Origin: Skeletonema tropicum
Lineage: Eukaryota > Bacillariophyta > Thalassiosirophyceae > Thalassiosirales > Thalassiosiraceae
DNA: 64,000 bases
Direction of reading: 5' to 3'
Assembly (NCBI GenBank): GCA_037178625.1
Contig: CM074135.1
Span: 2,916,001-2,980,000 of the forward strand
The translations under genes and the position numbers were made by a program. The notes below the pieces were generated by a model. It saw only the letters and a list, made by a program, of their open reading frames with translations, was not told the DNA's origin and did no database searches. This document shows, piece after piece, positions 13,501 through 63,841 of this stretch. Each line of letters begins with the position of its first letter. Position 1 is the stretch's first letter.

Positions 13501-13563
13501 TGGTAGAAATGGTGAGTGAGAGTGAGTCTTGCAGCATTAAGGGGCAGTGGGGAGGGGTTTGAT
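13501..13563 (+). pseudogene. relic of the LRR-family C-terminal tail
   Basis: The DNA from 13501 (GTAGAAATGGTGAGTGAGAG) to the TGA near 13560 matches the last codons of LRR copy A (16918-16997), with the middle of the tail deleted. In both places GTGGGGAGGGG leads into TTGATC. It is the leftmost trace of the family in this window. It is short, so the match needs an alignment to be sure. Confidence 0.45.
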
Positions 13564-13792
13564 CTTTGTGGTGCCAAACCCAAATGTAATGTTAATGTGA
13601 CAAGTTAATCGACGAAATTGCAACGCAACTCCCAAACCCAAAGTTGCAACTCTAGGCACAACTCATAGTGTGGTACGAGCAAATTCTCAGACGCCTCGTA
13701 AGTGATACATATCGATGTAAAGACGCCCTCGTAAGTGATACATTTAAGTACCTACCCTGAAAAACAGAAAAATATTTTAAAATATTCATCTC

Positions 13793-13818
13793 ACCTTGAC
13801 CTTGACCTTGACCTTGAC
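13793..13818. repeat. hexanucleotide microsatellite (CTTGAC)n
   Basis: Four tandem copies of a 6-bp unit (ACCTTG) lie in the upstream region of the MYND gene. The rest of 13154-13989 is pyrimidine/purine-skewed, low-complexity DNA without a supported gene, apart from the tail relic at 13501. Confidence 0.7.
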
Positions 13819-13989
13819 ACCGACGCTGCCCTCGCTCGATAGGCCGAACCGAGTATGCAGATGCAGACCTCTACTGCAACATCATAACTAACTCCCTCTG
13901 TCTTGGTTCCGTACAAATCGGACAAGAACAAGAACGTGAACAGAGAACGAGCAGATAATTTTTTGACGTTACAGCTCACAGCTTCTAGC

Positions 13990-15725: not shown

Positions 15726-16970
15726 ATGGAAGCTACAATGTGGCAGATTGAGTGGCAGAGGGTCAGGGAAAATCATCCTCATACAGAATTGTTGTCGGGT
15801 TGTGGCGGAGATGATCACATCAATGATATGTCAGATGTCAACTGGGAGGAACTCGGTCGTGACATATCAAATAACACCCACTTAATCACTGTTCATTATC
15901 ACGCAGGCGCCCTCAACGATCATAAGATGTCATATTTCTTTCGAGGATTGACAGGGAGCAATTCTATGGAAGAGGTGTTGCTGCCTGGAAATGGAATAAG
16001 CGCAGTAGGAGTTCGGAGCATGGTGCCATTCTTACACAATTCAAGCAATCTCATGTATTTGTATCTCCAGGACAACAACATTCAATCAGAGGGATTCAAT
16101 ATGCTGTTGAGTGCATTGAGTGACAGTCCAATTAAAGAGCTAAGTTGCGAAAGATGTGGCATTGAATCGATTGAGATTGACAGCGACTGCTACCCCAAAC
16201 ATTTGAAGGAGTTGTATTTAGAAGACAACAAAATCAACGCTGATGGATGCCGTGGATTAGCCAAATTGCTTCGGGGGGGAGGCACTGTACTGAGTGATCT
16301 ATTCCTTTACAACAATGAAATTGATGACGACGGCGTTGCTGTTTTGGTCGATGCCCTACGAAAGAATACGTTACTGAAGACTTTGAATTTGCAGGGTAAT
16401 TATAGCATATCAAAACAAGGACGTATAATGTTGCTGAAGCTAGTGAATGACGTATCAAGCATCGAAGCGACTTTGCAATCCAACCATACCTTGAAATTTA
16501 TTCATGCTGACTTCTTAACTGGAGAATTAACTCTTCTCAAAGAGGCCACAAGCATTAACAGAGACGAATCCTACTCAGAAGCAGCAGCTGGCAAAGAGAA
16601 GGTGATTCAAACACAACTACATAGCGCGACGAAAGCAACACTGGCAGAACTGCAGGACACCAACCATTCTTCGTACAGCGAGATCCAACCTATTCACTTG
16701 CCAGAAGTGCTCTCATTGGTTGGCCGACATCATGATCAGGGAGAGCTGTATGTGGCATTGAAATCGTCGATAGCAGGAGTGATCTCTACGGTTAATAGGA
16801 AGCAGTGTCTAGAACAACAATGGAGATATCACAATTCCATAGTAGCTGAGCATAAAGCAGCGATGGAGGCAATAGAAGCTGAACTTGCATCGATAAATGC
16901 AGCAGAGGGTCATGCAGTAGATGTGGGGAGTGAGAGCGAGTCTCGCAGCAACAAGAGGCGCCGAACGTAG
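15726..16970 (+). CDS. RNI-type LRR family, copy A (414 aa)
   Basis: The ATG is at 15726; the upstream in-frame TTG is not used. Architecture shared by the family: an ELGRDISNNTHL cap at about 40-55; seven or eight ribonuclease-inhibitor-like LRRs to about residue 265, including a CxxCG-containing unit (LSCERCGIESIEID) that replaces the normal strand-turn; a conserved link (SYSEIQPIHLPEVLSLVGRHH, then SSIAGVISTVNRKQC); a coiled coil (EHKAAMEAIEAELASI); and a basic tail (NKRRRT). There is no signal peptide, so it is cytosolic or, given the basic tail, perhaps nuclear. Specific to A: it lacks the acidic 20-residue N-terminus of its relatives, and its Trp-rich tail is cut off by a TGG-to-TAG change (the codons after the stop still read WQGLWGGA). 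LRRs of this type bind proteins; the partner is unknown. Confidence 0.9.
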   Translation: MEATMWQIEWQRVRENHPHTELLSGCGGDDHINDMSDVNWEELGRDISNNTHLITVHYHAGALNDHKMSYFFRGLTGSNSMEEVLLPGNGISAVGVRSMVPFLHNSSNLMYLYLQDNNIQSEGFNMLLSALSDSPIKELSCERCGIESIEIDSDCYPKHLKELYLEDNKINADGCRGLAKLLRGGGTVLSDLFLYNNEIDDDGVAVLVDALRKNTLLKTLNLQGNYSISKQGRIMLLKLVNDVSSIEATLQSNHTLKFIHADFLTGELTLLKEATSINRDESYSEAAAGKEKVIQTQLHSATKATLAELQDTNHSSYSEIQPIHLPEVLSLVGRHHDQGELYVALKSSIAGVISTVNRKQCLEQQWRYHNSIVAEHKAAMEAIEAELASINAAEGHAVDVGSESESRSNKRRRT

Positions 16971-19563: not shown

Positions 19564-20865
19564 TCAAGCCCCTCCCCCTCCCCAAAGCCCCCACCACCAC
19601 GTTCGGCGTCTCTTGTTGCTACGAGGCTCATTCCTGACATCTACTACGCGACCCTCTGCCGCTTCGATTGTCGCAATTTCAGCTTCTATTACCTCCACTT
19701 TGTCTCTGTGCTCAGCTATCATTGCATTGTGGTAATTCCTTTGTTGTTCTAGACACTGCTTCCTATTTATTGTAGATATAACTCCTGCTATGGATGATTT
19801 CAATGCCACGTATAGCTCTCCCTGATCATGATTCTTACCTACCAACGAGAGCACTTCGGGCAAGTGGAGAGGGTTAATCTCGCTGTACATAGAATGACCT
19901 ACTCTCTGTAGTTCTGCCAACTCTGCTCTTTTCCTGTGATGTAGCTGCAATTTGATCACCTTTGCCCTAGCAGCTGCTGCTGGGCTGCGGTTGCCTTCCT
20001 CTCGGTTGATCTGCATAGCCATATTGAGATGTTCGTCCGTAAGTGTATCCAATGAGTCCACAAAGAGATAACTCAAGGTATGGTTGGATTGCAGAGTTGC
20101 TTTGATGCTAGAGATGTTATTCACGAGCTCCAACAACATGCACTGTCCTTGTTTTGATATACCATTATTCCTATCAAGATTCAGCACAAACAAAGATGTG
20201 TTCTTTTGAAGGGCGTCAACTAAAATGCCCACTCCTTCATCGTCAATTTTATTGTTAGCGAGATATAGATCAGTTAGCGCAGAATTTTCACCCTGCAGTA
20301 GTTTTGCCAGTCCACGGCATCCATCACTGTTGATTTTGTTGCATTCCAAATTTAGCTCCTGTAAATGCTTGGGGATATGCTCATCGTCAATTTCAATCGA
20401 TTCGATGCCACAACCCTCACAACGCAACTCTTTAATTGGGCTATTTCGTAACGCCCTCAGCAGCATATTAAATCCTTCTGATTGTAAATCATTATTATCG
20501 AGATCCAAAAACATGAGATTGCTAGCATTTTGTAAGAATGGCACCAAACTCCGCACTGCTGCCACGCTTAACTGATTGTCGTGAAGATGCAATTTTTCTA
20601 TTGAGTTGCTCCCTGTCAGTCCCCGGAAGAAAAGCGTCATCTTGTAATCATTGAGTGCGTTATCGTAAAGAACTACTTCTGTCAAGTGGGTGTTGTTTGA
20701 TATATCGCGACCAAGCTCCTCCCAATCCTCGTCGGTCATATTTTGGACGTAATTATCATAGCCGTGTAGATCTAACTCCGTCGCATAAGGATCATTTTCC
20801 TGGATCATCTGCCATTCGGCGAGCCACTCTTGGTCCTCGTTGGGATTACTGTCGTTACCGTCCAT
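19564..20865 (-). CDS. RNI-type LRR family, copy B (433 aa)
   Basis: ATG at 20865 (MDGNDSNPNEDQEWLAEWQ). B carries the full acidic N-terminus, the complete LRR block, and the complete C-terminus ending TWWWGLWGGGGA, so I use it as the reference for an undamaged member. Its CxxCG unit reads LRCEGCGIESIEID. The stop is followed on the minus strand by a GC-rich flank. Upstream, 91 bp from the start, is palindromic element 2 (20956-21007), related to the element in front of the unknown gene at 10408-11829. The twelve bases before the start (CCAGCAGAATGG with the ATG) are shared with copies D and E, suggesting that the 5' leader was duplicated with the gene. Confidence 0.92.
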   Translation of the reverse strand: MDGNDSNPNEDQEWLAEWQMIQENDPYATELDLHGYDNYVQNMTDEDWEELGRDISNNTHLTEVVLYDNALNDYKMTLFFRGLTGSNSIEKLHLHDNQLSVAAVRSLVPFLQNASNLMFLDLDNNDLQSEGFNMLLRALRNSPIKELRCEGCGIESIEIDDEHIPKHLQELNLECNKINSDGCRGLAKLLQGENSALTDLYLANNKIDDEGVGILVDALQKNTSLFVLNLDRNNGISKQGQCMLLELVNNISSIKATLQSNHTLSYLFVDSLDTLTDEHLNMAMQINREEGNRSPAAAARAKVIKLQLHHRKRAELAELQRVGHSMYSEINPLHLPEVLSLVGKNHDQGELYVALKSSIAGVISTINRKQCLEQQRNYHNAMIAEHRDKVEVIEAEIATIEAAEGRVVDVRNEPRSNKRRRTWWWGLWGGGGA

Positions 20866-21400: not shown

Positions 21401-22702
21401 ATGGACAACGACGATGAAGATAACAACAGCTCCGTAGCTTCTCTAAACGAGGCCGAGGTGTGGCTGGCCAAATGGTTGGCCGTCTTGCAGAGTATCAGGG
21501 AAAATGATCCAGATACGACGTCATTATTGGAGAATGGAGATTATAGACACATGATAAACATGACCGACGAGGAATGGGTGCAGCTTGGTCGAGATATATC
21601 GAGCAACACCCACTTGGAAACTATCAGTCTTTACGATGGCATCCTCGACGATCATCAGTTATCGCTATTGTTCAGGGGGTTGACTAGGAGCAGTTCCATA
21701 AATTACATGCGCATAAATAATAATGGGTTGAGCGCAGCAGGAGTCGGGAGTATCATGCCATTTCTACAACATGCAGATTCTCTACTAGAGTTGAACATCA
21801 GTTGTAACAATATTCAATCGGAAGGGTTCAACTCATTGGTGCGAGCGTTGACTGAAAGTTCCGTCGATACGCTGTATTGCAATGATTGCGGCATCCACTC
21901 GATTGAGATTGATAGCTATTGCTTCCCCAAACACCTGACAGTATTAAATTTATGCAATAACATGATCAACTACGATGGATGCCGTGGACTAGCAAAATTG
22001 CTGAAGGGGAGAGATTCTACGTTGAGGCATCTATATCTCCTTAGCAACAAAATTGATGACGAAGGAGTGGGAGCACTTGCTGACGCCCTTCAAAACAATA
22101 CATCACTGTTGACTCTAGACTTAAGGAAAAATCATGACATATCAAAGCAGGGACAAATTGTGCTGTTGAAGCTAGTGAATGACATCTCTAGCATCAAAGC
22201 AACATTGCAATCAAATCACACCTTGAAAATTCTCACTCTACAGCCAGTGGATGCAGCAATTCGGAGGAATATCAATATGGCAACAAGCATCAAAAATGAT
22301 AAAAAGAACCCAGATGCAGCTCGAAGAATGAAGATGATTCAGACACAGCTACAAAGTGAAAGAAGAGAGGAGTTGGCGCATTTGCAGGGAGTAATCCATT
22401 CATTGTACAGTGAGATCAACCCTCTCCATCTTCCAGAGGTACTTGCATTGGTGGGACAGCAACATGGTCAGGCAGAACTGTATGTGGCGTTGAAATCATC
22501 GATAGCAGGAGTGATATCTACAGTGAACAGGAAGCAGTGTCTACTACAGCAAAGGGTGTATTATAGTGCCAAAATAGATGCCATAGACGCTGAAATTGCC
22601 ACAATTGAAGGGGCAGAGGCAAGTGTGGAAGATATCAGGAATGAGTCTCGCAGCAACAAAAGACGCCGAAAGTGGTGGTGGGGACTGTGGGGAAGTGCTT
22701 AA
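21401..22702 (+). CDS. RNI-type LRR family, copy C (433 aa)
   Basis: ATG at 21401 (MDNDDEDNNSSVASLNEAEV). C is the most diverged of the left-hand copies in the LRR surface: its Cys unit is LYCNDCGIHSIEIDS and its first LRRs read HLETISLYDGILDDHQ. The coiled coil is about eight residues shorter than in B. It ends in an intact NKRRRKWWWGLWGSA tail. The segment EGAEASVEDIRNESRS before the tail is almost the same in copy D and in the plus-strand tail fragments at 33.6, 36.4 and 39.5 kb, so C, D and these fragments form one subgroup. B and C are divergently transcribed from a 535-bp spacer. Confidence 0.92.
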   Translation: MDNDDEDNNSSVASLNEAEVWLAKWLAVLQSIRENDPDTTSLLENGDYRHMINMTDEEWVQLGRDISSNTHLETISLYDGILDDHQLSLLFRGLTRSSSINYMRINNNGLSAAGVGSIMPFLQHADSLLELNISCNNIQSEGFNSLVRALTESSVDTLYCNDCGIHSIEIDSYCFPKHLTVLNLCNNMINYDGCRGLAKLLKGRDSTLRHLYLLSNKIDDEGVGALADALQNNTSLLTLDLRKNHDISKQGQIVLLKLVNDISSIKATLQSNHTLKILTLQPVDAAIRRNINMATSIKNDKKNPDAARRMKMIQTQLQSERREELAHLQGVIHSLYSEINPLHLPEVLALVGQQHGQAELYVALKSSIAGVISTVNRKQCLLQQRVYYSAKIDAIDAEIATIEGAEASVEDIRNESRSNKRRRKWWWGLWGSA

Positions 22703-22936: not shown

Positions 22937-23118
22937 TCACATTCGGCGTCTTTTATTGGTGCGAAGAGAATCACTCCTCACATCCACTTCACGACCCTCT
23001 GCCTCTGCTGCTTCGATTGCCGCAATTTCAGCTTCTACCTCTTCCATTTTGGCTCTATACTCAGCTATCATTGTGTTGTAGTATGTTTTTTCCTGTTGTA
23101 GACACTGCTTCCGGAGCC
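22937..23118 (-). pseudogene. RNI-LRR family, C-terminal tail fragment
   Basis: The minus strand encodes the last ~58 residues of the family (RKQCLQQEKTYYNTMIAEYR...TNKRRRM). Homology stops abruptly near 23118, where unrelated sequence begins. The LRR block is absent. The tail lacks the Trp peptide because the flank junction supplies an early stop. Confidence 0.75.
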
Positions 23119-25546: not shown

Positions 25547-26821
25547 TCAAGCCCTTCCCCACAATCCCCACCACCACTTTCGGCGTCTTTTGCTGCTGCG
25601 AGACTCATTCCTGATGTCTTCTAGACTTGCCTCTGCTCCTTCAGTTGTGGCAATTTCAGCTTCAATGCCATCTATTCCAGCCCTGTGATATGCCCTTTGT
25701 TGTTGTAAGCACTGGTTCCTATTTACTGTAGATATCACTCCAGCTATCGATGATTTCAATGCCACATACAGCTCTCCCTGACCATGATGTCGGCCTACCA
25801 ATGCAATAACTTCGGGCAAGTGAAGAGGATTGATTTCGCTGTATATCGATTGACCTACTCCTTGGAATCCTGCCATCTTTGTTCTTACACCGCTATGTAA
25901 CTGTGTCTTAATCACCTTTGCCCTAGCAGCAGCTGCTGGGTTGCGGTTGCCTTCCTCTCGGTTGATAGAAGTAGTCGTAAAGATATACGCCTGAATATAT
26001 ATGTATTTCACTGAAACCAATGGGTCCACATAGAGACGTTTCAAGGTATGGTTGGATTGAAATGTTGCTTTGATGCTAGAGATGTTATTTACAAGCTTCA
26101 ACAACAAGCTCTGTCCTTGTTTTGATATACCATTATTCCTCGCCAGATCTAAAGAAACCAATGATGTATTCTTTTGAAGCGCGTGAACAAGGATGCCCAC
26201 TCCTTCATCGTCGATTTGATTGGCATCGAGATGTAGGTGAGTTAGCGTGGAATCACTCCCCTGCAGCAATTTTGCTAATCCACGACATCCATCAGCGTTG
26301 ATGATGTTATCATGTAACCATAACTTCTTCAAATGTTTGGGTTTTTGCTCGCTGTCAATCTCAATCGATTCGATGTCGCATCCATCGCAACGCAGCCATT
26401 TAATAGGACTGTCACGTAATGCCCTCAGCAGCATATTAAATCCTTCCGATTGTATATTATTACCATTGAGGATCAAATACATGAGATTTTTAGCACTCTG
26501 TAAAAATGGCACCATGCTTCGAACCCCTGCTGCAGTTAACTGATTTTCACACAACTGCATACTTCCGATAGAGCTGCTCCTAGTCAATCCCCGGAAGAAA
26601 AATGACATTTTGCGATCATTGAGGGCGCCTTCAGTAAGACGGACATATTGCAAGTAGGTGTTGCTCGATATATCCCGACCAAGCTGTTCCCAGTCCACGT
26701 TGGTCATAATATTTTGCTCGAGGCGAAGATGCAATTTCGTCGTATGAGGATCATTTTCATTTATCCTCTGCCATGCGGCGAACCGATCGTATTCGTGGGG
26801 ACCACCTTCGTTATTGTCCAT
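25547..26821 (-). CDS. RNI-type LRR family, copy D (424 aa)
   Basis: ATG at 26821 (MDNNEGGPHEYDRFAAWQR); further upstream the frame continues but has only a GTG. The Cys unit is LRCDGCDIESIEID, with an Asp where other copies have Gly. The linker after the LRRs carries an insertion (VKYIYIQAYIFTTTSINREE). The tail is intact (SKRRRKWWWGLWGRA). The coiled coil is short, as in copy C. C and D face each other across the spermidine-synthase-like gene with matching 3' flanks, forming a large imperfect palindrome. Confidence 0.9.
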   Translation of the reverse strand: MDNNEGGPHEYDRFAAWQRINENDPHTTKLHLRLEQNIMTNVDWEQLGRDISSNTYLQYVRLTEGALNDRKMSFFFRGLTRSSSIGSMQLCENQLTAAGVRSMVPFLQSAKNLMYLILNGNNIQSEGFNMLLRALRDSPIKWLRCDGCDIESIEIDSEQKPKHLKKLWLHDNIINADGCRGLAKLLQGSDSTLTHLHLDANQIDDEGVGILVHALQKNTSLVSLDLARNNGISKQGQSLLLKLVNNISSIKATFQSNHTLKRLYVDPLVSVKYIYIQAYIFTTTSINREEGNRNPAAAARAKVIKTQLHSGVRTKMAGFQGVGQSIYSEINPLHLPEVIALVGRHHGQGELYVALKSSIAGVISTVNRNQCLQQQRAYHRAGIDGIEAEIATTEGAEASLEDIRNESRSSKRRRKWWWGLWGRA

Positions 26822-27200: not shown

Positions 27201-27503
27201 CCTGGGCTCACATCGTTTGTGTTTTGCAGTGCTTGTTCCCACGAGTAGACCTAAAGTGATGGAGAGGCGCAAATTAGAGTTACATGGTGGAGAGGAATAT
27301 CAAGTATTGCGGTGGGAAGCTTCTTTTATTGCACTGGATGTCAATGTCAATGTCGTCATCCTGATCCCCTGGTCGCTTCTGCTGCTTCTTAATTGCTGGC
27401 TCTGTCTCTACTTTGCTGTGCTAACTTGCACTTGCAACCTAAAAAATTAAGACTGTAGTTTAGAACAATAATTGAACAAGATCAACTTATGCTACTGCTA
27501 TTC

Positions 27504-27720
27504 TCAATTGCAATATCCCACTACTCTACCAACCCTCCTCTGCTGCTCGATCGTTGCAATTTCAATTTCAGCTTCAGCTTCTATAGCTTCCACTTCAGCT
27601 CTATGCTTAATATTACTATTATGGCTCTGTGATATGCCTTTGTTGTTGTAGACACTGCTTCCAATTCCTATAGATATAACTCCAGCTATCGATGATTTCA
27701 ATTTCAATGCCACGGCCACG
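27504..27720 (-). pseudogene. RNI-LRR family, decayed C-terminal tail
   Basis: The recognisable parts are KLKSSIAGVIS (about 27700) and the coiled coil AEVEAIEAEAEIEIATIE, with a frame break between them at the CLQQQ segment. The basic tail is gone. The DNA to its left (about 27320-27500, TTTTATTGCACTGG...) is shared with 35745-35940 and 38530-38760, where equivalent tails follow. The 27810-28192 spacer that precedes the next gene shows an (ACACCT)n run at about 27758-27784 at its left side and nothing else. Confidence 0.65.
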
Positions 27721-33533: not shown

Positions 33534-33657
33534 TTTTAAAGGGGAGAAGCGAAGCCAAAGCAAGATTAATGCCTTTTTTGTCGCTAACGCACCCCTGCTG
33601 TGACCAACTTCATTTGAAACAATGCTCGATTCACGATGACTCATTAGTTCTAGTGAT

Positions 33658-33860
33658 GTGGCGATGAAATCATCGATAGCAAGAGTGAGCTGAAGCAGTG
33701 CCTGGCACAAAAAAGGGCACATCACAGGGCTAGAATAGCGGCGATGGAAGCTATAATTGCCACAATTGAAGAAGCAGAGGAACATGAAGAAGGTATCAGG
33801 AATGAGTCTCGCAGCAAAAGACGCCGAAAGTGGTGGTGGAGACTGTGGAGAGGGGCTTAA
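33658..33860 (+). pseudogene. RNI-LRR family, tail fragment (unit 1)
   Basis: It begins at the codons for VA(L/M)KSSIA and ends with the full tail (RRKWWWRLWRGA, stop at 33858-33860), but a small deletion after SSIA causes an early stop, so it is not translatable as a unit. The sequence immediately before it (GATTCACGATGACTCATTAG) is also found before the fragments at 36.4 and 39.5 kb, so the truncation happened once and was then copied. Confidence 0.8.
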
Positions 33861-34146
33861 TGAATTTCACTTCGTCTGTGAGTTAATGAGTAATTCTAAT
33901 TTTTGTAGCTAATAATGATATCGTTCGTGCCCACAGTCAGATAAGTTTGGGCTACAAGTGAAACACGAATAGCCCAGAGACGAGAAGCAGAAAAGGATAC
34001 GATAGAGCAAAGCCCAGAGCAAAAGCAACAATTCGTAAATCATGAGGAAGAATACTAGTTTATACAAGATGTTAGACGCTGATCGATGAGCTGAATTCCC
34101 CCGCTCACAATGGTTCGACACTGATCGATGAGCTGAATTCCCCCGC
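33861..34146. repeat. shared LRR 3' flank, copy 2
   Basis: Equivalent to 22703-22936 and extending further. The last part holds two direct copies of GATCGATGAGCTGAATTCCC (near 34080 and 34121). The second runs straight into the stop codon of LRR copy E on the minus strand. Confidence 0.8.
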
Positions 34147-35436
34147 TCACTTTCGGCGTCTTTTGTTCCTGGGAAGAGACTCATTCCCCATATCCACTGC
34201 ACGACCCTCTGCCTCCGCTGCCTCAATTGTCGCAAGTTCAGCTTCCACCTCCCTCACTTTGGTTCTACACTCAGCTATCATGGCGTTGTAGTACACTCTT
34301 TGCTGTTGTAGACACTGCTTCCTGTTCACAGTAGATATCACTCCCGCTATCGATGATTTCAATGCCATGTACAGCTCTCCCTGATCATGATTCTTACCTA
34401 CCAATGCAAGCACTTCGGGTAAGTGCAGAGGATTGATCTCGCTGTACAAAGATTGACTTATTCCTTGTAGTTCTGCCAACTCTGCTCTTACACCGCTATG
34501 TAGCTGTGTTTGAATCACCTTTGCCCTACCAGCAGCTGCTGGGTTGCTGCTGCCTTCCTTTCTATTGATCTGAGTAGCCCTGTGGATATGCGCCTGAATA
34601 TCTATGTCTGTAACCAATGGGCTCACAAAGAGATTTTTCAAGCTATGGTTGGATTGCAGAGTTGCTTCGATGTTAGAGATGTCATTCACGAGCTTCAGCA
34701 ACATGCACTGTCCTTGTTCTGATATACCATCATTCCTCTGAAGATTCAACCAAGTCAATGATGTATTCTTTTGAAGGGCATCAACAAGTATTTCCACTCC
34801 TTCATCGTCGATGTTATTGTTAGCGAGATGTAGATCAGATAGAGTTGAATCTGCCCCCTGCAGCAATTTGGCCAATCCACGGCATCCATCAGCGTTGATT
34901 TTGTTCCGAACTAAATTCAGATGTGTCAAATGCTTGAGGACATTTTCGCTGTCAATCTCAATTGACTCGATGCCACATCTATCGCAAAACAGCCGTCTAA
35001 TGGGGCTATTTCGTAACGCCCTCACCAGCAAATTAAATCCTTCCGATTGTAAATCATTATCTTCGAGTTCCAAACATTTGAGATAGGGTGCATTTTGTAA
35101 AAATGGCATCATGCTGCGAACTCCTGCTGCGCTTAATCCATTACGGTGCAAACTCATCCGTTCAATAGAAATGCTCCCTGTCGATCCCCGGAAGAAAAAT
35201 GATATCTTATGATCGTTGAGGGCGTCATGGCAAAGAGTTACTTCTATCAAGTGTGTGTTGTTGGATACATCACGCCCGAGCTCTTCCCATTCCTCGTCTG
35301 TGAAATTTTGGGTGTGATGTTGATCGCCGTCTAGATCTAACTCCGTCGTATCAGGATCATCTTCCTTGATCCTCTGCAAAGTGGCATTGTAATCCTCTTC
35401 GTCCTCCTCGCTGAGATTACTGTCGCTATCGTCCAT
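34147..35436 (-). CDS. RNI-type LRR family, copy E (429 aa)
   Basis: ATG at 35436 (MDDSDSNLSEEDEEDYNATL); an in-frame TTG further up is ignored. The LRR block is complete; the Cys unit is LFCDRCGIESIEIDS. The protein ends directly after NKRRRK, because the CCGCTCAC flank junction provides the TGA where copies B-D continue into WWWGLWG. Linker and coiled coil are complete (AYNAMIAECRTKVREVEAEL-like). On the minus strand its 5' side leads into GGGGGCC element copy 2. Confidence 0.9.
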   Translation of the reverse strand: MDDSDSNLSEEDEEDYNATLQRIKEDDPDTTELDLDGDQHHTQNFTDEEWEELGRDVSNNTHLIEVTLCHDALNDHKISFFFRGSTGSISIERMSLHRNGLSAAGVRSMMPFLQNAPYLKCLELEDNDLQSEGFNLLVRALRNSPIRRLFCDRCGIESIEIDSENVLKHLTHLNLVRNKINADGCRGLAKLLQGADSTLSDLHLANNNIDDEGVEILVDALQKNTSLTWLNLQRNDGISEQGQCMLLKLVNDISNIEATLQSNHSLKNLFVSPLVTDIDIQAHIHRATQINRKEGSSNPAAAGRAKVIQTQLHSGVRAELAELQGISQSLYSEINPLHLPEVLALVGKNHDQGELYMALKSSIAGVISTVNRKQCLQQQRVYYNAMIAECRTKVREVEAELATIEAAEAEGRAVDMGNESLPRNKRRRK

Positions 35437-35544
35437 TCTGCTGGCCGGCTGCCACAAGCCACAACAGTGTACAATAGCAAAAGATGTTATGTTATGATGT
35501 TGTGTTGTTTGAGTTGGATGGATGCGGCGCGGGGCACCAGCCTT

Positions 35545-35645
35545 TGTTTAGGGGGCCAAAAGCCCCAAATACCCCCAAGATTTTAAAGGATACCTAAAGT
35601 CTATGTTGGGGATAATCTGGCCTTTCAAAGCGGGGGAGCCCGCAT
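35545..35645. repeat. GGGGGCC element, copy 2 (hairpin lost)
   Basis: TTAGGGGGCCAAAAGCCCC, then AAATACCCCCAAGATTTT and TTGGGGATAATCTGGC...CAAAGCGGGGGAGCCC. The hairpin of copies 1 and 3 has been deleted down to a remnant (GGATACCTAAAG). The following block (35740-35940) is the TTTTATTGCACTGGGTGTCA sequence shared with the other two units. Confidence 0.7.
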
Positions 35646-35944
35646 CCAACCAAACTTGTGCGATCCAGTACTTCTTTTTATCTACACATGAGACCAGATT
35701 GAATATCCAGATATTTTCAGATAGTCCTTCTGATCGACTTCTTTTATTGCACTGGGTGTCAATTTCATCTTGGTTCGCTTCTGCTTCTTCTTCTTCATTG
35801 CTGGCTCTAACTTAATGCTCGGCTAACTTTGCGACCTAAAACAAAAGTGATGAGTGGAGAGTTACAGCAATAATTGAACAAGATCAACTTCAATTGCTAT
35901 TGCTATTGCTACTGCTAGTCTTAATTGAAATACCCACTGCTAAA

Positions 35945-36217
35945 CTAACTCTCTCCTGCTTCGAACGTTGCAATTTTAGCTTCTATCGCCTCCACTTCAG
36001 CTCTATGCTCAGCTATTATGGCTCTGTGATATGCCCTTTGTTGCTGTAGGCATTGCTTCCTGTTTACTGTAGATAACACTGGACCTATCGATGAATCAAA
36101 TGCAATATATATCTCTGTCTCATCATAATTCTTACCTCCCAATGAGAGCACTTTGGATAGGTGAAGAGGATTGATCTCGCTGTACAAGGAATGGTTGATG
36201 TCCTGTAGTTCTGCCAA
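35945..36217 (-). pseudogene. RNI-LRR family, longer C-terminal fragment
   Basis: An open frame covers the linker and coiled coil (MAELQDINHSLYSEINPLHL to IEAKIATFEAGES), without LRRs and without the basic tail. The signature IAFDSSIGPVLST replaces VALKSSIAGVIST of the full-length copies. The same change is seen in the fragment at 38.8 kb, so these two descend from one another. An ATG is present at the start, but expression is doubtful. Confidence 0.75.
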
Positions 36218-39440: not shown

Positions 39441-39487
39441 CACTCTGCTTTGTTTGATTCACGATACGATGACTCATTAGTTAGCAA

Positions 39488-53678: not shown

Positions 53679-54983
53679 ATGGAGGAGATGGTAAACGACA
53701 ACGAAGAGAGCTCATCGCAGGATGATGATAATTCGGTCAGCACCATCTTGAAAGTGAAGGAAAATGATCCTGATACGACAGAATTAGAACGGGGTGGCAC
53801 TGATATCCAAAATATGACCGACGAGGAATTGGAAGAGCTCGGTCGCGATATTTCAAACAACACCCACTTGAGAGATTTGACTCTTGCTGGGGTTTACGAT
53901 GGGCAAAAGATGTCATTTTTCTTCGAGGGATTGACAAGAAGTAGTTCCATCCAACAAATAAGTTTGTGCAGTAATGGATTAAGTGTGGTAGCAGTGAGGA
54001 GCATGGTGCCATTCTTACAAAATGCTAACAATCTCATACATGTGGATCTCGATGTTAATGATTTACAATCGGAAGGATTCAATATGCTGCTGAGGGCGTT
54101 ACGAAATAGTCCAATTAAAGAGCTGCATTGTGAGGGTTGTGGCATCGAATCGATTGAGATTGACGACGAGCATATTCCCGTGCATTTACAGGAGCTAAAT
54201 TTGGAATGCAACATCATCAACAGTGATGGATGCCGTGGATTAGCCAAATTGCTTCAGAGGGAAAATTCCGCGCTAACTTTTCTATATCTCGCTAACAATA
54301 AAATCGACGATGAAGGAGTGGGCATTTTAGTTGATGCCCTTCAAAAGAACACATCATTGTTTATGTTGAATCTTGAGAGGAATAATGGTATATCAAAACA
54401 AGGACAGTGCATGTTGTTGAAGCTTGTGAATAACATCTCTAGCATCAAAGCAACTCTGCAATCCAATCACACCTTGAGGTATCTCTTTGTGAGCTCATTG
54501 GTTACACACATAGATATTCAGGAACATCTCAATATGGCTACACAGATCAACCGAGAGGAAGGCAACCGCAACCCAGCAGCTGCTGCTAGGGCAAAGGTGA
54601 TTAAGACACAGCTCGATAGCGGTGTAAGAGCAGAGTTGGCAGGATTACAGGGAGTAGGTCATTCTGTGTACAGCGAGATTAACCCTCTTCACTTACCCGA
54701 AGTTATTGCATTGGTAGGCCGACATTATGGTCAGGGAGAGCTGTATGTGGCATTGAAATCATCGATAGCTGGAGTTATATCTACAATAAATAGGAAGCAG
54801 TGTCTAGAACAGCATAGGAGTTACCACAATGCCATGATAGCTGAGCATAGAGTCAAAGTAGAGGCAATTGAAGCTGAGCTTGCGACAATCGAAGCAGCAG
54901 AGGCAGAGGGTCAGCGGAGAGGGATTGCGGAGCATGGTGCAAATTGGCAGAAATATGAAGAAAATTTGGAGGTCAAATTTTAG
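53679..54983 (+). CDS. RNI-type LRR family, copy H (434 aa)
   Basis: ATG at 53679 (MEEMVNDNEESSSQDDDNSV). With I and J it forms a right-hand subgroup whose N-terminus reads MEE/MEV...DDDSVSTI...KENDP. Its LRR block, however, is very close to copy B (ELHCEGCGIESIEIDDEHIP against ELRCEGCGIESIEIDDEHIP), which suggests gene conversion or a chimera. The C-terminus is abnormal: after EAAEAEG it runs QRRGIAEHGANWQKYEENLE instead of the basic tail, so the family's NKRRR stretch is absent. The end has been replaced by foreign sequence. Confidence 0.9.
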   Translation: MEEMVNDNEESSSQDDDNSVSTILKVKENDPDTTELERGGTDIQNMTDEELEELGRDISNNTHLRDLTLAGVYDGQKMSFFFEGLTRSSSIQQISLCSNGLSVVAVRSMVPFLQNANNLIHVDLDVNDLQSEGFNMLLRALRNSPIKELHCEGCGIESIEIDDEHIPVHLQELNLECNIINSDGCRGLAKLLQRENSALTFLYLANNKIDDEGVGILVDALQKNTSLFMLNLERNNGISKQGQCMLLKLVNNISSIKATLQSNHTLRYLFVSSLVTHIDIQEHLNMATQINREEGNRNPAAAARAKVIKTQLDSGVRAELAGLQGVGHSVYSEINPLHLPEVIALVGRHYGQGELYVALKSSIAGVISTINRKQCLEQHRSYHNAMIAEHRVKVEAIEAELATIEAAEAEGQRRGIAEHGANWQKYEENLEVKF

Positions 54984-57987: not shown

Positions 57988-59301
57988 ATGGAGGAGATGA
58001 ATTACGACAGCGACGGATCGGAGAATGACGATGATTCGGTCAGCACTATCATGAGAGTCAAGGAAAATGATCCTAATACGATTACATTAGAACGGGTTGG
58101 CACGGCTGTTGATGATATACAAAATATGATTGATGATTTCCAAAATATGACCGACGATGAATTGGAAGAGTTCGGTCGTGATATTTCAAGCAACACATAC
58201 TTGAAATTTGTAACTCTTTGTGATGACGCCCTTAACGATCGCAGAATGTCACTGCTCTTCCGGGGATTGATAAGAAGTAGTTCCATCCAACGAATGAGTT
58301 TGTGCAGTAATGGATTAAGCGCAGCAGGAGTTCGCAGCATGATGCCATTCTTACAGAGTGCTAGCAATCTTACGTATTTGGACCTCAGTGACAACAATAT
58401 TCAATCAGAAGGATTTAAGACGCTGTTCCGGGGATTGTGTGATAGCCCAATAAAAATGCTGCGTTGCGTTCGATGTGGCATCGAATCGATTGAAATTGAC
58501 AGCGAACACAAACCCAAACATTTGACACAGTTACATTTAGAAATAAACAACATCAACGCAGATGGGTGCCGTGGATTTGCCCAATATCTTCAGGGAGGAG
58601 ATTCTACGCTAACTCATCTATATCTCCGTCACAATAAAATCGGCGACGAAGGAGTGGAAATACTTGTTGATGTCCTTCAACACAATACATCATTGAAGTG
58701 GTTGAATCTTCTTGGTAATGATGGTATATCAAAACAAGGGCACATCGCGATGCTGAAGCTCGTGAACAACATTTCTAGCATCGAAGCAACATTGCAATCC
58801 AATCATACTTTGAAGTATCTCTTGGTGGACCCATTGGTTACAGTTACAGACATGGATATTGAGGCACATTATAATGTGGCGATGGATATTAACCAAAAGA
58901 CAGTCAACTCAGAAGCAGCTGGAAGGATGAAGGTGATCAAGTCGCAGCTACATAGAGGTGTAAGAGCAGAGTTGGCGGAACTGCAGGGAGTAAGTCATTC
59001 TGTGTACAGCGAGATTAACCCTCTTCACTTACCCGAAGTTATTGCATTGGTAGGTAAACATCATGGGCATGGAGAGCTGTATGTGGCATTGAAATCATCA
59101 ATAGCGGGAATGATATCGACAGTGAACAGGGAGCAGTGCCTGAAACAGAGAAAGATACACCACAATGCCATGATAGCTGAGCATAGAGCCAAAGTGGAGG
59201 CGATAGAAGCTGAACTTGCGACAATCGAAGCAGCAAAGGGACGTGCATTGGATATTGGGCGTGAGTCTCCTCGCAGCAACAAAAGAAGTCGCTTCGGATA
59301 A
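57988..59301 (+). CDS. RNI-type LRR family, copy I (437 aa)
   Basis: ATG at 57988 (MEEMNYDSDGSENDDDSVST). The region before the cap has an internal duplication (DIQNMIDDFQNMTDDE). The Cys unit is LRCVRCGIESIEIDS. The linker contains AGMISTVNREQCLKQRKIHH, with Met in place of Val and Glu in place of Lys. The tail is basic but altered (SNKRSRFG) and no Trp codons follow. The 22 bp before the ATG (AAAGCC-CCCTGAAAG) are nearly identical to those before copy J, so the leader was duplicated with the gene. Confidence 0.92.
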   Translation: MEEMNYDSDGSENDDDSVSTIMRVKENDPNTITLERVGTAVDDIQNMIDDFQNMTDDELEEFGRDISSNTYLKFVTLCDDALNDRRMSLLFRGLIRSSSIQRMSLCSNGLSAAGVRSMMPFLQSASNLTYLDLSDNNIQSEGFKTLFRGLCDSPIKMLRCVRCGIESIEIDSEHKPKHLTQLHLEINNINADGCRGFAQYLQGGDSTLTHLYLRHNKIGDEGVEILVDVLQHNTSLKWLNLLGNDGISKQGHIAMLKLVNNISSIEATLQSNHTLKYLLVDPLVTVTDMDIEAHYNVAMDINQKTVNSEAAGRMKVIKSQLHRGVRAELAELQGVSHSVYSEINPLHLPEVIALVGKHHGHGELYVALKSSIAGMISTVNREQCLKQRKIHHNAMIAEHRAKVEAIEAELATIEAAKGRALDIGRESPRSNKRSRFG

Positions 59302-62300
59302 GTATCGCTAGGGATAAGACGATTAACTTGTAACATTTTTTGTTAGTATTAACGCTTCTTTATCATTGGGATCTCCTACTACTACCCTTCCTCGGACTTT
59401 TAGATCAGAATGAGCAGAAACAATAATACGAATATATGAGACAGGCATACGTTCATGGTTTTGTCATTGGATAGATAGATTATTTTAGTTACTGCCACCA
59501 GGTTGCGGTAGGTACATCATAGGTGCCTACTGGGGCAATTTTTTCAGGCTGTGGGCTTCAACAAATTTGGGGGCGAGAAAAGGGGAGAAAAAAGAGGAGA
59601 AAACTCGCCGGCACAAACATCCATGGCCGGCGGAGACGTCGACGCTCCGGAGAGGGTACTTATCATCGAAGTCATTACAATGCACTGGTGAGCCCTTTGG
59701 CATTATCTATACCACACAAGCGCCAAGCCAGGTTGGTGACGATTCCGATGTAGATGATGAGGAGCTCGACAGAATGGCGGCAGCCGCTGCGGATGATCTC
59801 TCCGATGATGGACTTGATGCTGGAGTGTAGGCTGCCATCGATATGCCTCCTTCTTCGAGTTGGTTGTCGAAACTCGCTGGAAGAAATCGTTCCACAGAGA
59901 GAATGCATTCAAACGACGAGTGGAATACTTTAAAGACAATGTCGGTCGATAACTACTCTGGAATAAGATTGACTGACTTCGCTACAAGCTGGAACAACTG
60001 GGTCGATACTCTTGGGCATTCCAAGCCAACAGTGACGCACAAGTGCCAGTCATCTTCAGGAGGCCTATAAAACTATGAAGAGCAGGGTGGTAGAGGCAGC
60101 CACTCTTCGTCCTCACACCAAGGCTATCCACAGTGCTCCTGCAAGAATAACTGGTATAATGTTCATTGCAGTTATATTTAATAACGTAGCATATGTGTAG
60201 CAGTAACCGCTCTACTGAGCGCATAGACGCATTCTAAACAATATTTGATTGATAAACTGCTATGGAGTAGCATTTGTGCACTATGTGAAGTGAGGTGGTG
60301 AAAATTGAGCAAAATTACAAGCATCGTAACTATGTAATAATAAGACAGCGACCGTTGCAGTTACCAGCCTATGGGGTGCAACAATGAAATCTGCATGATA
60401 TTTTGGTATTGCGGGTAATCTAGATTACTATTTGACTCACCATCAGTGGCGTTTTATGCGTCGTGAAGTTGATGTAATATTGCATCATTGCGCCGACATC
60501 GAGTTGCAGCGGTAGCAAGTTTCGCAAGGGGGCAAGCCCCATGCCCTCCAGCAAGAGATCTGGAATGTCACGTTAATGATGGGTGTCAACAAATGTGATG
60601 GAACGGATCTTGAATTTTAACTAATCCCACATAGACGAGAGTTGCATTGTGTGATTATAGCGTGACGAGAGTTGCATCTTCTACGTGACGATGCAAGCCT
60701 GAGAACGTTGCCCCTTACGGTGGAACAGAACTATTTTTTTGCCTAGTAAAAGTTGCTGTTTATCTAGTGAAGATGGTCCCGTAGACCAACGGTAGGAATT
60801 AATATACCCCCATGCGAAAACAAATTCGGCCAAATCAAGTCACGCATTCACTTTTTTGCCCACGGGTAGGAAAAGTGGCCGTTTGGATCTTCACACTTTC
60901 TCCAACATTCACCAACCACAAACGGCCAATGACACAACCACCATGATGCCATTGTGGACTGCCTATTAGCACAAAATCGGCTTCTTACCAAGCGACAATA
61001 ATGAGATATTTGCTAGACAAGCCTATTTGTAGATCGGCTGCAACAAAATTGTCGCTTGGTACGACTTACTGTAGGAGAGAATAGCCATCCCCACAACGTA
61101 ACGGAAATTGGTCGATGCAACTGATGTTGTCGACTAATGCCTCGGATAATCATCGTTATCACCATTTACGATGCCACCACGACGCACCTACCAGCGGTAT
61201 ATGTCCATAGGGAAGCGACAGTGTCTTGGTAGCCGCTCAATCGCCCGATTTTGTCGGAATGAAGGGCGGTAACTCTGTGTCGACATATTTTTCATATTTT
61301 TTATTATCCGCACTGCTGTGCAATAAGAAGATACAATAAACCACTGATGAAGGCAACCAACCCGCTCCCTCGACTCTAATATGGTTATAGACGACGGCTT
61401 AGCACTCTGGAGCGGTAGATAAGGTCCACACGACGTCGCCTACACGTTACAGAAAATATATAAAAATTCGTTTCCGTCGAACACAACAATCAACTGACAA
61501 TTAATTCAAACGGCGTAGATATCGATCAAAGAAACATCAATACATCATTATCATGATAGTATGCATCCGTGGGAATAATATTACTAATGTATGTTGAGGG
61601 AAACATCATATTTATCAAGTATTACATTTATAATAATTTACATAAAATAATAACAAATAATAACATAGTTTATCTGATATTAAACTCTAACATGATGAAC
61701 CACCAACACATAGAAGTCTTATATTACAATTATATGATCGTAGGACTCATGGATAACCACTCATTTGCAGTCAATGGCTCTTCATAAGGTAGATTATTGT
61801 ATACACTCTGGGAAGGAAAATAGATTGTTTCTCACCAATAGAATTTGCTTGATCATGTTTTAGGTGATGTTTATGAACAGCCCAAGTATCAAAAGACGTC
61901 CCCCATATATCATTTATCGATTTTATGCGAGGAAACCCTCCCCTTATATGTATATCATCACGTAAACGTCCGTGGGAGGGATGAAAGGAGGTGAAAGTTG
62001 TGGATTTTATGACATTTATGGCGACGTTATAATCTTCATTTTCGATACATCAACTGAGTATTGCCGTCGTTGTCACTTAGATTATGATGTATACGATCGG
62101 ATAAGCCTAGTATAGTAGGTGTATTTATTCGCTGTGCATAACTGTGGCCCTAGGAGTGGATGACATCATGGTGAGGGTGTAAAAGATGATATTCGGAGGG
62201 TGGATTTGAGTGGTACCGATTAGCGAATTTGAGGCTACGATAGGAATTGGCCCTTTACGTACGGCCAAAAAAGCGATTGTACGTTAGGAATAGTACTTGA

Positions 62301-62548
62301 AGTTAGTTCTGTTCCACCTTACTTACTGGCAGAAATCATCACTCTATGCCTCCTCTTTCATTCATATCGTGGGTACGAGCGTGGCGGACTTTTTGAGACA
62401 GGCGTCTCATGCGATAGGAGGTGATACTCCTACGAGCGAGCGTACTTAGCTTGTAGCTTGATACCTAATACTTGATACTACAACTTGAAATGCTTATGGT
62501 ATGATGGAGGCGAGCAACTCAAATTCTTACTTAAAGCCGCCCTGAAAG
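59302..62548. other. long gene-poor region
   Basis: I support no gene over 3.2 kb. A protein-like but broken stretch (TDFATSWNNWVDTLGHSKPT, about 59965-60025) is unrecognised. A 14-bp perfect stem (TACCAAGCGACAAT) lies at 60986-60999/61048-61061. A 15-bp inverted pair (GGTGGAACAGAACTA) at 60719-60733/62304-62318 may bound a 1.6-kb non-coding element. The 61500-61800 part is very AT-rich. Confidence 0.45.
62375..62408. promoter_or_regulatory. conserved upstream element, copy 3
   Basis: GCGGACTTTTTGAGACAGG again, here followed by CGTCTC, giving a perfect GAGAC-AGGC-GTCTC inverted repeat. It ends 140 bp before LRR copy J. The left half is shorter than in copies 1 and 2. Confidence 0.55.
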
Positions 62549-63841
62549 ATGGAAGTGATTTATAACGACAGCGAAGGATCGGAGAATGACGATGATTCGG
62601 TCAGCACCATCTTGAGAGTGAAGGAAAACGATCCTTACACGACGCAATTAGAACGGGGTGGCACTGATGCTGATGATATCCAAAATATGACCGACGTTGA
62701 ATGGGAAGAGCTCGGTCGTGATATATCAAACAACACTCACTTGAGAGATTTAGATCTCAACAATAGCGACCTCAACGATCACAAGATGGCAATTTTCTTC
62801 CGGGGATTGACGAGGAGCAGTTCTGTCGAACAAATTTGTTTGTACAGTAATGAATTCAGTGCAGCAGGAGTTCACAGCATGGTCCCATTTTTACAGAATG
62901 CTTACAATCTCATATTTTTGGATCTCAGTGGCAACAATTTTCAATCGGAAGGATTTAATACACTGTTGAGGGCATTGCAAAACAGCCCTGTTAAAGAACT
63001 GTCGTGCGATGGTTGTGGCATCGAATCGATTGAGGAGAATATTCCTCAAAACTTGACAGAGTTACATTTAGATGACAACATTATCAACGCAGATGGGTGC
63101 CGTAGATTAGCCACATTGCTTCAGGGGGGAGATTCTGCGCTAACTCATCTATATCTCAATGGCAATAAAATCGGCGACGAAGGAGTGGAAATACTTGTTG
63201 ATGCCCTTCAAAATAATAAGTCATTGGAAGCTTTGGATCTCAGGGATACTGATGGTATATCAAAACGAGGTCAAATCATGCTACTGAAGCTTGTGAATGA
63301 CATCTCTAGCATCAAAGCAACATTGCAATCCAACCATACCTTAAAATATATCAGTGTGGACCCACGGACAGAAGTGGACCCATTGGCTACAGACTTGGAT
63401 ATTGAGGTACATATCAATATGGTTGCACAGATCAACCAACAGCAAGACAACCCAGAAGTAGCTGGCTGGATGAAGATCATTGACACCCAGTTGCATAGCG
63501 GGAAGAGAGCAGAATTGGCGAAACTGCAGGGAGTAAGTCATTCTGTGTACAGCGAAATCAACCCTCTTCACCTACCCGAGGTGCTTGCATTGGTAGGTAA
63601 ACATCATGGGCATGGAGAGCTTTATGTGGCATTGAAATCATCAATAGCGGGAGTGATATCGACAGTGAACAGGAAGCAGTGTGTACAACAGCAAATTGCG
63701 CATTATAGTGCCAAAATAGCTGAGTATCGGGCTAAACTGGAGTCGGCAGAAGCTGAACTTGCGACGATGGAAGCAGCAGAGGGTCATGTAGTGGACATGG
63801 GAAGCGAGTCTCCTCGCAGCGGCAAAAGGCGACGCTCCTGA
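62549..63841 (+). CDS. RNI-type LRR family, copy J (430 aa)
   Basis: ATG at 62549 (MEVIYNDSEGSENDDDSVST). The Cys unit is LSCDGCGIESIEENIPQNLT: the segment between SIE and IP is several residues shorter than in other copies. The linker after the LRRs has an insertion (DPRTEVDPLATDLDIEVHIN). It ends SGKRRRS with no Trp peptide. I and J share KHHGHGELYVALKSSIAG, a His in place of the usual Asp or Gln. It is the last family member before the window ends; the cluster may continue beyond. Confidence 0.92.
   Translation: MEVIYNDSEGSENDDDSVSTILRVKENDPYTTQLERGGTDADDIQNMTDVEWEELGRDISNNTHLRDLDLNNSDLNDHKMAIFFRGLTRSSSVEQICLYSNEFSAAGVHSMVPFLQNAYNLIFLDLSGNNFQSEGFNTLLRALQNSPVKELSCDGCGIESIEENIPQNLTELHLDDNIINADGCRRLATLLQGGDSALTHLYLNGNKIGDEGVEILVDALQNNKSLEALDLRDTDGISKRGQIMLLKLVNDISSIKATLQSNHTLKYISVDPRTEVDPLATDLDIEVHINMVAQINQQQDNPEVAGWMKIIDTQLHSGKRAELAKLQGVSHSVYSEINPLHLPEVLALVGKHHGHGELYVALKSSIAGVISTVNRKQCVQQQIAHYSAKIAEYRAKLESAEAELATMEAAEGHVVDMGSESPRSGKRRRS

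What the first reader, a model, noticed from the sequence alone, without database searches (positions are those of the whole stretch)
13501..63841. Local expansion of an intronless RNI-type LRR family: ten full copies and at least nine relics
Copies A-J share one architecture: acidic N-terminus, RNI-like LRRs, a linker (LPEVLALVG...SSIAGVISTVNRKQC), a coiled coil and a basic tail. They lie on both strands, mixed with truncated tails, over 50 kb, while unrelated genes here have introns. Clustered, rapidly duplicating LRR genes with many pseudogenes are how immune and recognition families look in plants and animals. A recognition role here is inference.
Basis: partly seen in the sequence, partly recalled or inferred. 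Interest (0 to 1): 0.85.

Follow-up and report, generated by a model that had tools for sequence, protein, structure and literature searches.

The report
Diatom LRR repertoire with hypervariable face
A diatom carries dozens of related leucine-rich-repeat genes, most of them on one chromosome arm, whose predicted binding face changes fast under selection while most of the protein stays constant, as expected of a recognition repertoire, though what they recognise is not known.

Summary
The observation mostly holds. The window (Skeletonema tropicum chromosome 9) has ten full-length single-frame copies, eight well-supported C-terminal relics and one weak one. They are not assembly duplicates (closest pair 84% identical). 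Genome-wide there are at least 102 matching pieces, 78 on chromosome 9, nearly all in its last ~0.7 Mb.

The key result: the model is an RNI-type LRR arc with eight repeat strands, a helical linker and a 59-residue helix; most copies end in a KRRR-type tail. The 40 strand positions expected to face the concave side are hypervariable (15% mean pairwise identity in 130 sequences; other LRR positions 71%). Codon models give them dN/dS 1.75-2.2 (window ten p=5e-5; 40 copies p=5e-9) against about 0.3 elsewhere in the LRR; cruder counts are weaker. A single-copy chromosome-11 relative shows the reverse: there these positions are the more conserved. Copies are mosaics.

Best explanation: an intracellular recognition repertoire (variable LRR, constant helical module), most likely driven by an antagonist. 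Selection on the binding face is supported; location, ligand and immune role are inferred. No NB-ARC/NACHT, kinase or ROC match in the four copies scanned.

The parts
15726..16970 (+). copy A, full-length family member (414 aa), ends NKRRRT
   Evidence: ORF and family profile
19564..20865 (-). copy B (433 aa), tail KRRRT plus WWWGLWG extension; LRR4-8 closest to H (91%)
21401..22702 (+). copy C (433 aa), WWWGLWG tail
22942..23113 (-). C-terminal relic (E residues 372-429), convergent with copy C
   Evidence: nhmmer E 1.9e-31; tblastn
25547..26821 (-). copy D (424 aa), WWWGLWG tail
27486..27713 (-). C-terminal relic (residues 357-426)
   Evidence: nhmmer E 2.3e-27
33609..36239 (.). tandem unit (relic + / gene E / relic -), 81% identical to 36341-39047; further partial copy at 39466-41188
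   Evidence: self-comparison
33656..33828 (+). C-terminal relic (residues 356-429), first of three tandem copies
   Evidence: nhmmer E 1.3e-24
34147..35436 (-). copy E (429 aa), reference copy of the model
35903..36238 (-). C-terminal relic (residues 313-426)
   Evidence: nhmmer E 1.8e-72
36388..36564 (+). C-terminal relic, second tandem copy
   Evidence: nhmmer E 4e-28
36975..38186 (-). copy F (403 aa), early stop removes the basic tail
38703..39049 (-). C-terminal relic (residues 312-426)
   Evidence: nhmmer E 1.3e-67
39351..39443 (-). short C-terminal relic (residues 396-429)
   Evidence: nhmmer E 6.5e-12
39487..39669 (+). C-terminal relic, third tandem copy
   Evidence: nhmmer E 1e-28
39958..41274 (-). 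copy G (438 aa)
53679..54983 (+). copy H (434 aa), altered last ~23 residues, no basic tail
57988..59301 (+). copy I (437 aa)
62549..63841 (+). copy J (430 aa)
13374..13616 (-). possible decayed relic, weak
   Evidence: tblastn E 0.019, 34% over 83 residues, search of 3.8 kb only; not found by nhmmer

Best explanation
A lineage-specific repertoire of intracellular recognition proteins. Each gene makes a small RNI-type LRR arc whose concave face binds a ligand, joined to a constant module (helical linker, long helix that may oligomerise, basic NLS-like tail). Duplication and exchange between copies, followed by selection on the concave residues, keep making new specificities, while failed copies decay to tail relics. 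The most likely driver is an antagonist (virus, intracellular parasite or mobile element) whose product is bound in the cytosol or nucleus. Shown by computation: the family, its cluster, a confident fold prediction, mosaicism, selection on the expected concave positions, and a conserved single-copy relative. Inferred: cellular location, oligomerisation, ligand, signalling and the immune role.
For: Codon model (my own implementation, one rate class per set of sites), tree built only from the other LRR codons: concave omega 2.19 in the window ten (p=5.1e-5), 4.00 in the seven-copy E/F/G group (p=2.9e-6; 2.08 if the synonymous rate is held at that of the other LRR sites), 2.02 in the 20-copy clade (p=3.2e-7), 1.75 in 40 copies (p=5.2e-9); other LRR positions 0.31-0.46. 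These sets overlap, so the p-values are not independent. With a separate tree for each of four LRR segments, as a recombination control, omega is 1.77-2.56 at concave and 0.32-0.39 at other positions in both sets tried (20 and 40 copies; p 0.0002-0.013); six random sets of 40 other positions give 0.30-0.51. Site by site, 10 of 40 concave, 0 of 175 other LRR and 3 of 214 remaining positions have P(beta>alpha)>0.9. Synonymous divergence is alike at concave and other LRR positions (dS 0.65 and 0.67, window ten), which argues against a local mutation hot spot. 120 homologues from other sources show the same pattern: concave identity 0.156 against 0.708. The model puts a strand at offsets +2 to +4 of each of the eight repeats, where these positions lie. 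Single-copy relative: concave identity 0.84 against 0.69 for other LRR positions in 18 rows. Mosaicism: trees of residues 1-274 and 296-412 reject each other (AU p 4.8e-49 and 1.1e-5). Basic motif in the last 35 residues in 32 of 42 S. tropicum copies and 90 of 120 homologues. MMETSP transcript records exist for family members, so some members are transcribed.
Against: No ligand, infection response or localisation is known for any copy. No signalling domain was recognised in the C-terminal part. Simple NG86 counts are weaker: window ten concave omega 1.25 with bootstrap interval 0.83-1.88 on concave dS and 1.21 (0.98-1.51) on LRR-wide dS, and pooled over all 40 copies it is 0.96, below 1, where dS is near 1 and saturating. 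Two of eight close pairs compared show no concave excess (C9_2888827/C9_3010078 and C4_8922/C9_2845260). Other parts also vary freely: the N-terminus (omega 0.59) and a spacer at 275-300 (1.03) in the window ten. The concave positions were set by the LRR motif, but after I had seen the variability profile, and two of the eight repeats were placed by eye because the motif pattern matched only six. Recombination weakens any tree-based estimate; segment trees only reduce this. The one Skeletonema LRR gene I saw in print is induced in the sexual condition, not by infection (PMC6678668 passage); whether it is of this family is unknown.
Confidence: 0.5

Rival explanations
1. Binders of an endogenous, co-expanding or fast-changing set of host proteins (inhibitor or adaptor family, in the manner of RNase inhibitor or LRR substrate adaptors); diversity follows partner turnover, not pathogens.
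For: RNase inhibitor is among the best sequence and fold matches. Intracellular make-up with a conserved linker. The single-copy relative keeps its concave positions, as a binder of one conserved host partner would.
Against: No partner family is known, and none was looked for. Omega near 2 over the whole concave set is more typical of conflict than of adaptors (general knowledge).
Confidence: 0.22
2. Self/non-self or mating recognition, under diversifying or balancing selection.
For: An LRR gene of S. marinoi has logFC 10.5 and 7.5 at two times in the sexual condition (PMC6678668 passage); two LRR proteins are mating-type biased in Pseudo-nitzschia (PMC6261938 passages).
Against: Those Pseudo-nitzschia proteins have a transmembrane region; by hydropathy 41 of 42 copies here have none. 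The S. marinoi gene was described as similar to numerous T. oceanica proteins and was not shown to be of this family.
Confidence: 0.12
3. Unstable chromosome-arm family with relaxed constraint: diversity is drift in partly dead genes.
For: Relics and disrupted copies are common here and genome-wide. Pooled NG86 omega at concave positions over 40 copies is 0.96, which alone would fit neutrality.
Against: Other LRR positions and the linker of the same frames are under purifying selection (omega 0.20-0.24 by NG86; 0.31-0.46 for other LRR positions by codon model), and codon models put concave positions above neutrality. Drift in dead genes cannot give both in one exon.
Confidence: 0.05
4. Assembly or haplotype duplicates inflate the family.
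For: Elsewhere there are near-identical pairs: chr3 pair 100% over 4248 bp, chr6 pair 99.7% over 1887 bp, and parts of chr4:1-30 kb at 95.5-96.9% to chr9 in three of four compared stretches; the authors mention possibly redundant allelic sequence (PMC11032307 passage).
Against: Within the window the best CDS pair is 84% identical.
Confidence: 0.02

Closest known systems
Brown algal LRR-ROCO candidate immune receptors (PMC11378527, passages seen)
   Same: Stramenopile LRR genes with positively selected sites on the concave side (four sites per repeat reported there) and shuffling of LRR sequence.
   Different: Those have ROC-COR domains, one LRR per 72-bp exon and alternative splicing. Here: no ROC-COR match in four copies scanned, a single open frame, RNI-type repeats, a C-terminal helix and basic tail.
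Ribonuclease inhibitor (PDB 4per, 2bex, 1dfj)
   Same: RNI-type repeats, no signal peptide, concave binding face (the last from general knowledge); among the top sequence and fold matches.
   Different: Shorter arc; added linker, helix and basic tail; multigene family. Fold matches cover the arc only and are modest (TM-score at most 0.51 in the 50 rows shown). No evidence of RNase binding.
NLR receptors, LRR part only (NLRP3, NLRP9, NLRX1 structures)
   Same: LRR domain of the same class.
   Different: No NB-ARC or NACHT match in the four copies scanned; whole protein only about 430 aa.
Tandem-expanded LRR families of Seminavis robusta (PMC7335047, three passages seen)
   Same: Tandemly duplicated LRR genes in a diatom genome.
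   Different: The passages seen speak of expansion and high-temperature response and do not mention concave-face selection; relatedness to this family was not tested.
Single-copy chromosome-11 relative (L054) and its orthologue-like rows, including Thalassiosira profunda P0217
   Same: Alignable LRR and linker; the T. profunda row has a C-terminal extension with a KRPR motif.
   Different: Single copy in S. tropicum (next match 38% identical), concave positions conserved, and the Skeletonema-like rows end before the long helix.

Membership tests
RNI-type LRR proteins | Repeats with LxxLxLxxN strand followed by a helix; RNI-like fold | tested here: met
   LRR_6 above its cut-off in 3 of 4 copies scanned (H below, 18.1 against 23.4); model with repeat strands alternating with helices, mean pLDDT 88; RNase inhibitor among the top matches
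NLR (NB-ARC/NACHT-LRR) receptors | NB-ARC or NACHT domain | tested here: not met
   No such Pfam match in 4 of the 10 copies, scanned at E<=1
LRR receptor kinases / receptor-like proteins / TLRs | Signal peptide and transmembrane segment | tested here: not met
   Hydropathy proxy only: 19-residue mean over 1.6 in 1 of 42 S. tropicum copies and 1 of 120 homologues; hydrophobic N-terminus in 0 of 42 and 1 of 120
LRR-ROCO | ROC-COR GTPase domain | tested here: not met
   No match in 4 of the 10 copies scanned
Lamprey VLR | LRRNT/LRRCT caps, secreted or membrane-anchored, assembled somatically (from memory) | tested here: not met
   No cap domains in 4 copies scanned; no hydrophobic N-terminus; somatic assembly not testable
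RanGAP (name given to some homologues by a source) | Catalytic arginine and Ran binding (from memory) | not tested
   The label comes from source names; a RanGAP1 complex (9b62) appears only at rank 39
Candidate immune LRR repertoire (functional class) | Diversifying selection at ligand-facing LRR sites | tested here: met
   Codon models; NG86 counts alone are inconclusive
Candidate immune LRR repertoire (functional class) | Response to or protection against an antagonist | not testable with these tools
   No expression or infection data

The most novel reading that the evidence does not exclude
This is an intracellular, nuclear-targeted recognition repertoire of a diatom: dozens of genes that share a constant oligomerising module and a selected, variable LRR face, related to a conserved single-copy binder and refreshed by exchange between copies. 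It would be, as far as my searches of the held library show, the first such candidate immune repertoire described in diatoms, of a build with no NB-ARC, kinase or membrane part.
Probability: 0.33. Interest if true: 0.9.

Novelty: new variant of a known kind. Interest (0 to 1): 0.72.

Why it matters
Diatoms are major marine primary producers attacked by viruses and eukaryotic parasites, and how a single-celled alga recognises attackers is poorly known (general knowledge). This family gives a concrete candidate to test: the sites to change, the copies to follow and a natural control (the conserved single-copy relative) are named. The contrast between a conserved and a hypervariable binding face in one gene family is also a clean case for how a recognition repertoire can grow out of an ordinary binder.

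Tried and rejected
Assembly duplicates: rejected for the window (max 84% CDS identity). Viral origin or spread: 196 stretches in viral contigs matched a pattern, none was confirmed by tblastn. Retroposition: considered because the genes have one frame and all eight firm relics are 3' pieces; I did not test poly-A tails or target sites. The tandem units with flanks show at least some segmental duplication, and few exons per gene is usual in this genome. One shared expression site: the 400 bp upstream are not alike across the ten copies except parts of D/F, E/F and H/I/J, so a common promoter cassette is not supported. C-terminal module: no PDB sequence match below E 0.4, no Pfam match above cut-off, no fold match at E<=0.001; its separate model is poor (pTM 0.42), and in the full model residues ~331-380 have lower confidence (block means 59-74). 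NCBIfam gave no match near a cut-off. Homologues carry Pfam accessions PF27087 and PF27089 in the precomputed column; the local Pfam library did not return them, so I do not know what they describe. Literature: no held paper has Skeletonema, leucine-rich repeat and gene family expansion together; listings 19, 20, 50, 51, 52 (titles and starts of abstracts, at most 20 rows each) showed none on this family. (likelihood optimisation) is void: for three of its four data sets, and for the rate of the other LRR sites in all four, the optimiser stayed at its start; it was repeated with a proper start.

Rows dropped before counts: the second chr3 and chr6 copies (100% and 99.6% identical) were left out of the 40-copy analyses; founder-type rows P0201 (identical), P0213 and P0220 (partial) were left out of the 18, and rows P0221-P0235 were not treated as founder orthologues; alignment A3 left out 7 of 42 C-terminal pieces. 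Only the best 120 of 497 hits and 120 of 192 were listed. Of the S. tropicum pieces, 46 fetched loci were used for the 42 full frames; others among the 102 were not fetched. Genome-wide counts are lower bounds by the tool's note, and one broken gene can count as several pieces.
Full report
What the window is. The genome behind the window has 78,392,479 bases in 125 contigs and the window is C9:2916001-2980000. Contigs C3 and C4 are 4,895,999 and 4,763,068 bases long, the lengths of StrChr3 and StrChr4 of the Skeletonema tropicum assembly (passages of PMC11032307). So the window lies on S. tropicum chromosome 9. That contig is 3,169,793 bases long, which puts the window about 190-254 kb from its end.

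Observation. Ten full-length open frames of 403-438 aa are present on both strands. A DNA profile of the family finds these ten and eight further pieces at E<=1e-3, and nothing in one reversed and four shuffled windows. All eight pieces come from the C-terminal part (residue 312 onward of copy E). A ninth possible piece near 13.4-13.6 kb is weak. Identity between the ten coding sequences is 65-84%, so they are paralogues and not assembly copies. E, F and G form a tandem array: 33609-36239 is 81% identical to 36341-39047, and 39466-41188 is a further partial copy. Relics inside that array were copied along with the genes.

Extent. A search with copy E gives 102 matching pieces, a lower bound: 78 on chromosome 9 between 2.10 and 3.06 Mb (76 of them beyond 2.47 Mb) and 24 on chromosomes 3, 4, 6, 7, 8, 11, 18, 21, 22 and 23 (my count of the rows; one broken gene may give several pieces). 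From the window and 46 fetched loci I took 42 full-length open frames, 34 of them on chromosome 9. Some copies elsewhere are near-identical pairs that may be redundant assembly or recent exchange (chr3 pair 100%, chr6 pair 99.7%, four stretches of chr4:1-30 kb against chr9 at 90.4-96.9%).

Relatives. Of 497 database hits the best 120 are listed; where a species is given it is Skeletonema (S. marinoi, S. dohrnii, S. menzelii), and some are MMETSP transcript records, so members are transcribed in some strains. In a tree of 76 proteins (40 S. tropicum, 30 from other named Skeletonema, T. profunda and five unnamed founder-type rows), 20 S. tropicum copies, B-J of the window among them, form one clade (support 95/93), while close S. 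marinoi/S. dohrnii pairs occur elsewhere. The bootstrap had not settled, and unnamed homologues at 65-67% identity (P0001-P0003) were not in the tree, so 'S. tropicum only' holds for the rows used. Turnover looks fast within the genus.

A conserved single-copy relative. The chromosome-11 member (L054) is about 36% identical to the family. It is single-copy in S. tropicum: the next match in the genome is 38% identical. It has rows at 71-89% identity that look like Skeletonema orthologues (one named S. menzelii) and rows at 51-56%, among them T. profunda. Its linker aligns with that of the family; the T. profunda row has a C-terminal extension with a KRPR motif, while the Skeletonema-like rows end earlier.

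Fold. AlphaFold gives mean pLDDT 88 and pTM 0.77: a first strand at 32-36, then repeat strands at 65-69, 93-95, 121-123, 148-150, 172-174, 201-203, 229-231 and 268-270 with helices between them, helices from 280 to 349, one helix at 353-411 and a low-confidence tail from 414. Ribonuclease inhibitor, NLR LRR domains and axonemal LRR proteins are the main fold matches, with modest TM-scores (at most 0.51 by query length among rows of LRR proteins shown). The C-terminal module alone has no match.

Selection. I took the five x residues of LxxLxLxxN in each of eight repeats, 40 positions, as the concave set. The set was fixed before the model came back but after I had seen the variability profile, and two repeats were placed by eye. 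In 130 sequences their mean pairwise identity is 0.153 (0.156 in the 120 homologues alone) against 0.708 at the other 175 LRR positions; in 18 rows of the single-copy relative the order is reversed, 0.84 against 0.69. A FUBAR-like analysis of 40 copies finds P(beta>alpha)>0.9 at 10 of 40 concave, 0 of 175 other LRR and 3 of 214 remaining positions. With a tree from non-concave codons, concave omega is 2.19 (window ten, p=5.1e-5), 4.00 (seven copies of the E/F/G group, p=2.9e-6), 2.02 (clade of 20, p=3.2e-7) and 1.75 (40 copies, p=5.2e-9); other LRR positions give 0.31-0.46. With a tree per segment (kappa fixed at 2.5, all codons of the segment in the tree) concave omega is 1.77-2.56, p 0.0002-0.013, and other positions 0.32-0.39.

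Results that pull the other way. Simple NG86 counts are weaker: window ten 1.25 (0.83-1.88) on concave dS and 1.21 (0.98-1.51) on LRR-wide dS; E/F/G 1.62 (0.86-3.39) and 2.18 (1.50-3.32); five closest pairs 1.37 (0.91-2.15) and 1.54 (1.18-2.02). Pooled over 40 copies it is 0.96, with dS near 1. Two of eight close pairs show no concave excess. The N-terminus and a spacer at 275-300 also vary (omega 0.59 and 1.03 in the window ten; 0.54 and 0.62 in 40). All agree that concave positions evolve four to five times faster, relative to synonymous change, than the rest of the LRR; that they exceed neutrality rests on the codon models. Synonymous divergence is alike at concave and other positions (0.65 and 0.67), so a local mutation hot spot is unlikely.

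Mosaicism. The nearest neighbour of a copy changes along its length: B is closest to H at 91% in LRR4-8 but to other copies in the N-terminus, LRR1-3, linker and coil; trees of residues 1-274 and 296-412 reject each other, and 5 of 10 well-supported splits of the second conflict with the first. Exchange between copies is the simplest reading.

How it probably works. The pattern is a variable binding face on a constant body. By hydropathy the body has no membrane part in 41 of 42 copies, and 32 of 42 carry a basic motif near the end, so I place it in the cytosol or nucleus (inferred). The long helix suggests self-association (inferred). The ligand is something that changes quickly: an antagonist most likely (0.5), a changing host partner next (0.22), mating recognition less so (0.12).

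Comparison. Brown algal LRR-ROCO genes are the nearest precedent I found in stramenopiles: positive selection on the concave side of shuffled LRR exons (passages of PMC11378527). The present family differs in domain build and gene structure. Tandem LRR expansion in a diatom is already in print for Seminavis robusta (passages of PMC7335047), so expansion alone is not new. The selected face, the constant module and the conserved single-copy relative are what I did not find described (searches, listings only apart from the papers named).

Noticed in passing
window 48883-52834: Young LTR element: two identical 288-bp repeats (48883-49170, 52547-52834), flanked on both sides by CTGGA (48878-48882 and 52835-52839), with a 578-aa frame between them that has no Pfam match at E<=0.001.
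   Followed up: partly
window 30-2849: DUF285 (BspA-like) protein with internal repeats 73-89% alike and, by eye, one hydrophobic stretch ahead of them.
   Followed up: partly
window 30115-31278: An LRR frame of another class (LRR_1, LRR_8) lies among the RNI-type copies, with a hydrophobic frame close by (32308-32946); possibly one multi-exon receptor gene.
   Followed up: no
window 23572-24372: Spermine/spermidine synthase domain protein between copies C and D.
   Followed up: no
copies B, C, D and C9:2820238-2821632: A WWWGLWG extension follows the KRRR tail in only these 4 of the 42 full frames. B is only 69% and 74% identical in DNA to C and D, so the extension may have moved between copies; not tested.
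   Followed up: partly
chr4:1-30 kb and chr9:2.836-2.870 Mb: Three of four compared stretches are 95.5-96.9% identical, flanks included; the fourth, with one gene pair, falls to 90.4% and has 27 of 100 nonsynonymous sites changed at concave positions. Divergent haplotypes or exchange between chromosome ends.
   Followed up: partly
P0132 (database homologue): Matched by an H-type lectin model (E 6.8e-6), but the stretch (147-186) overlaps an LRR match (151-191), so it may be spurious.
   Followed up: no
C18 and C21 of the genome: Several more distant LRR frames (27-43% identical to the chr11 relative) on chromosomes 18 and 21.
   Followed up: no
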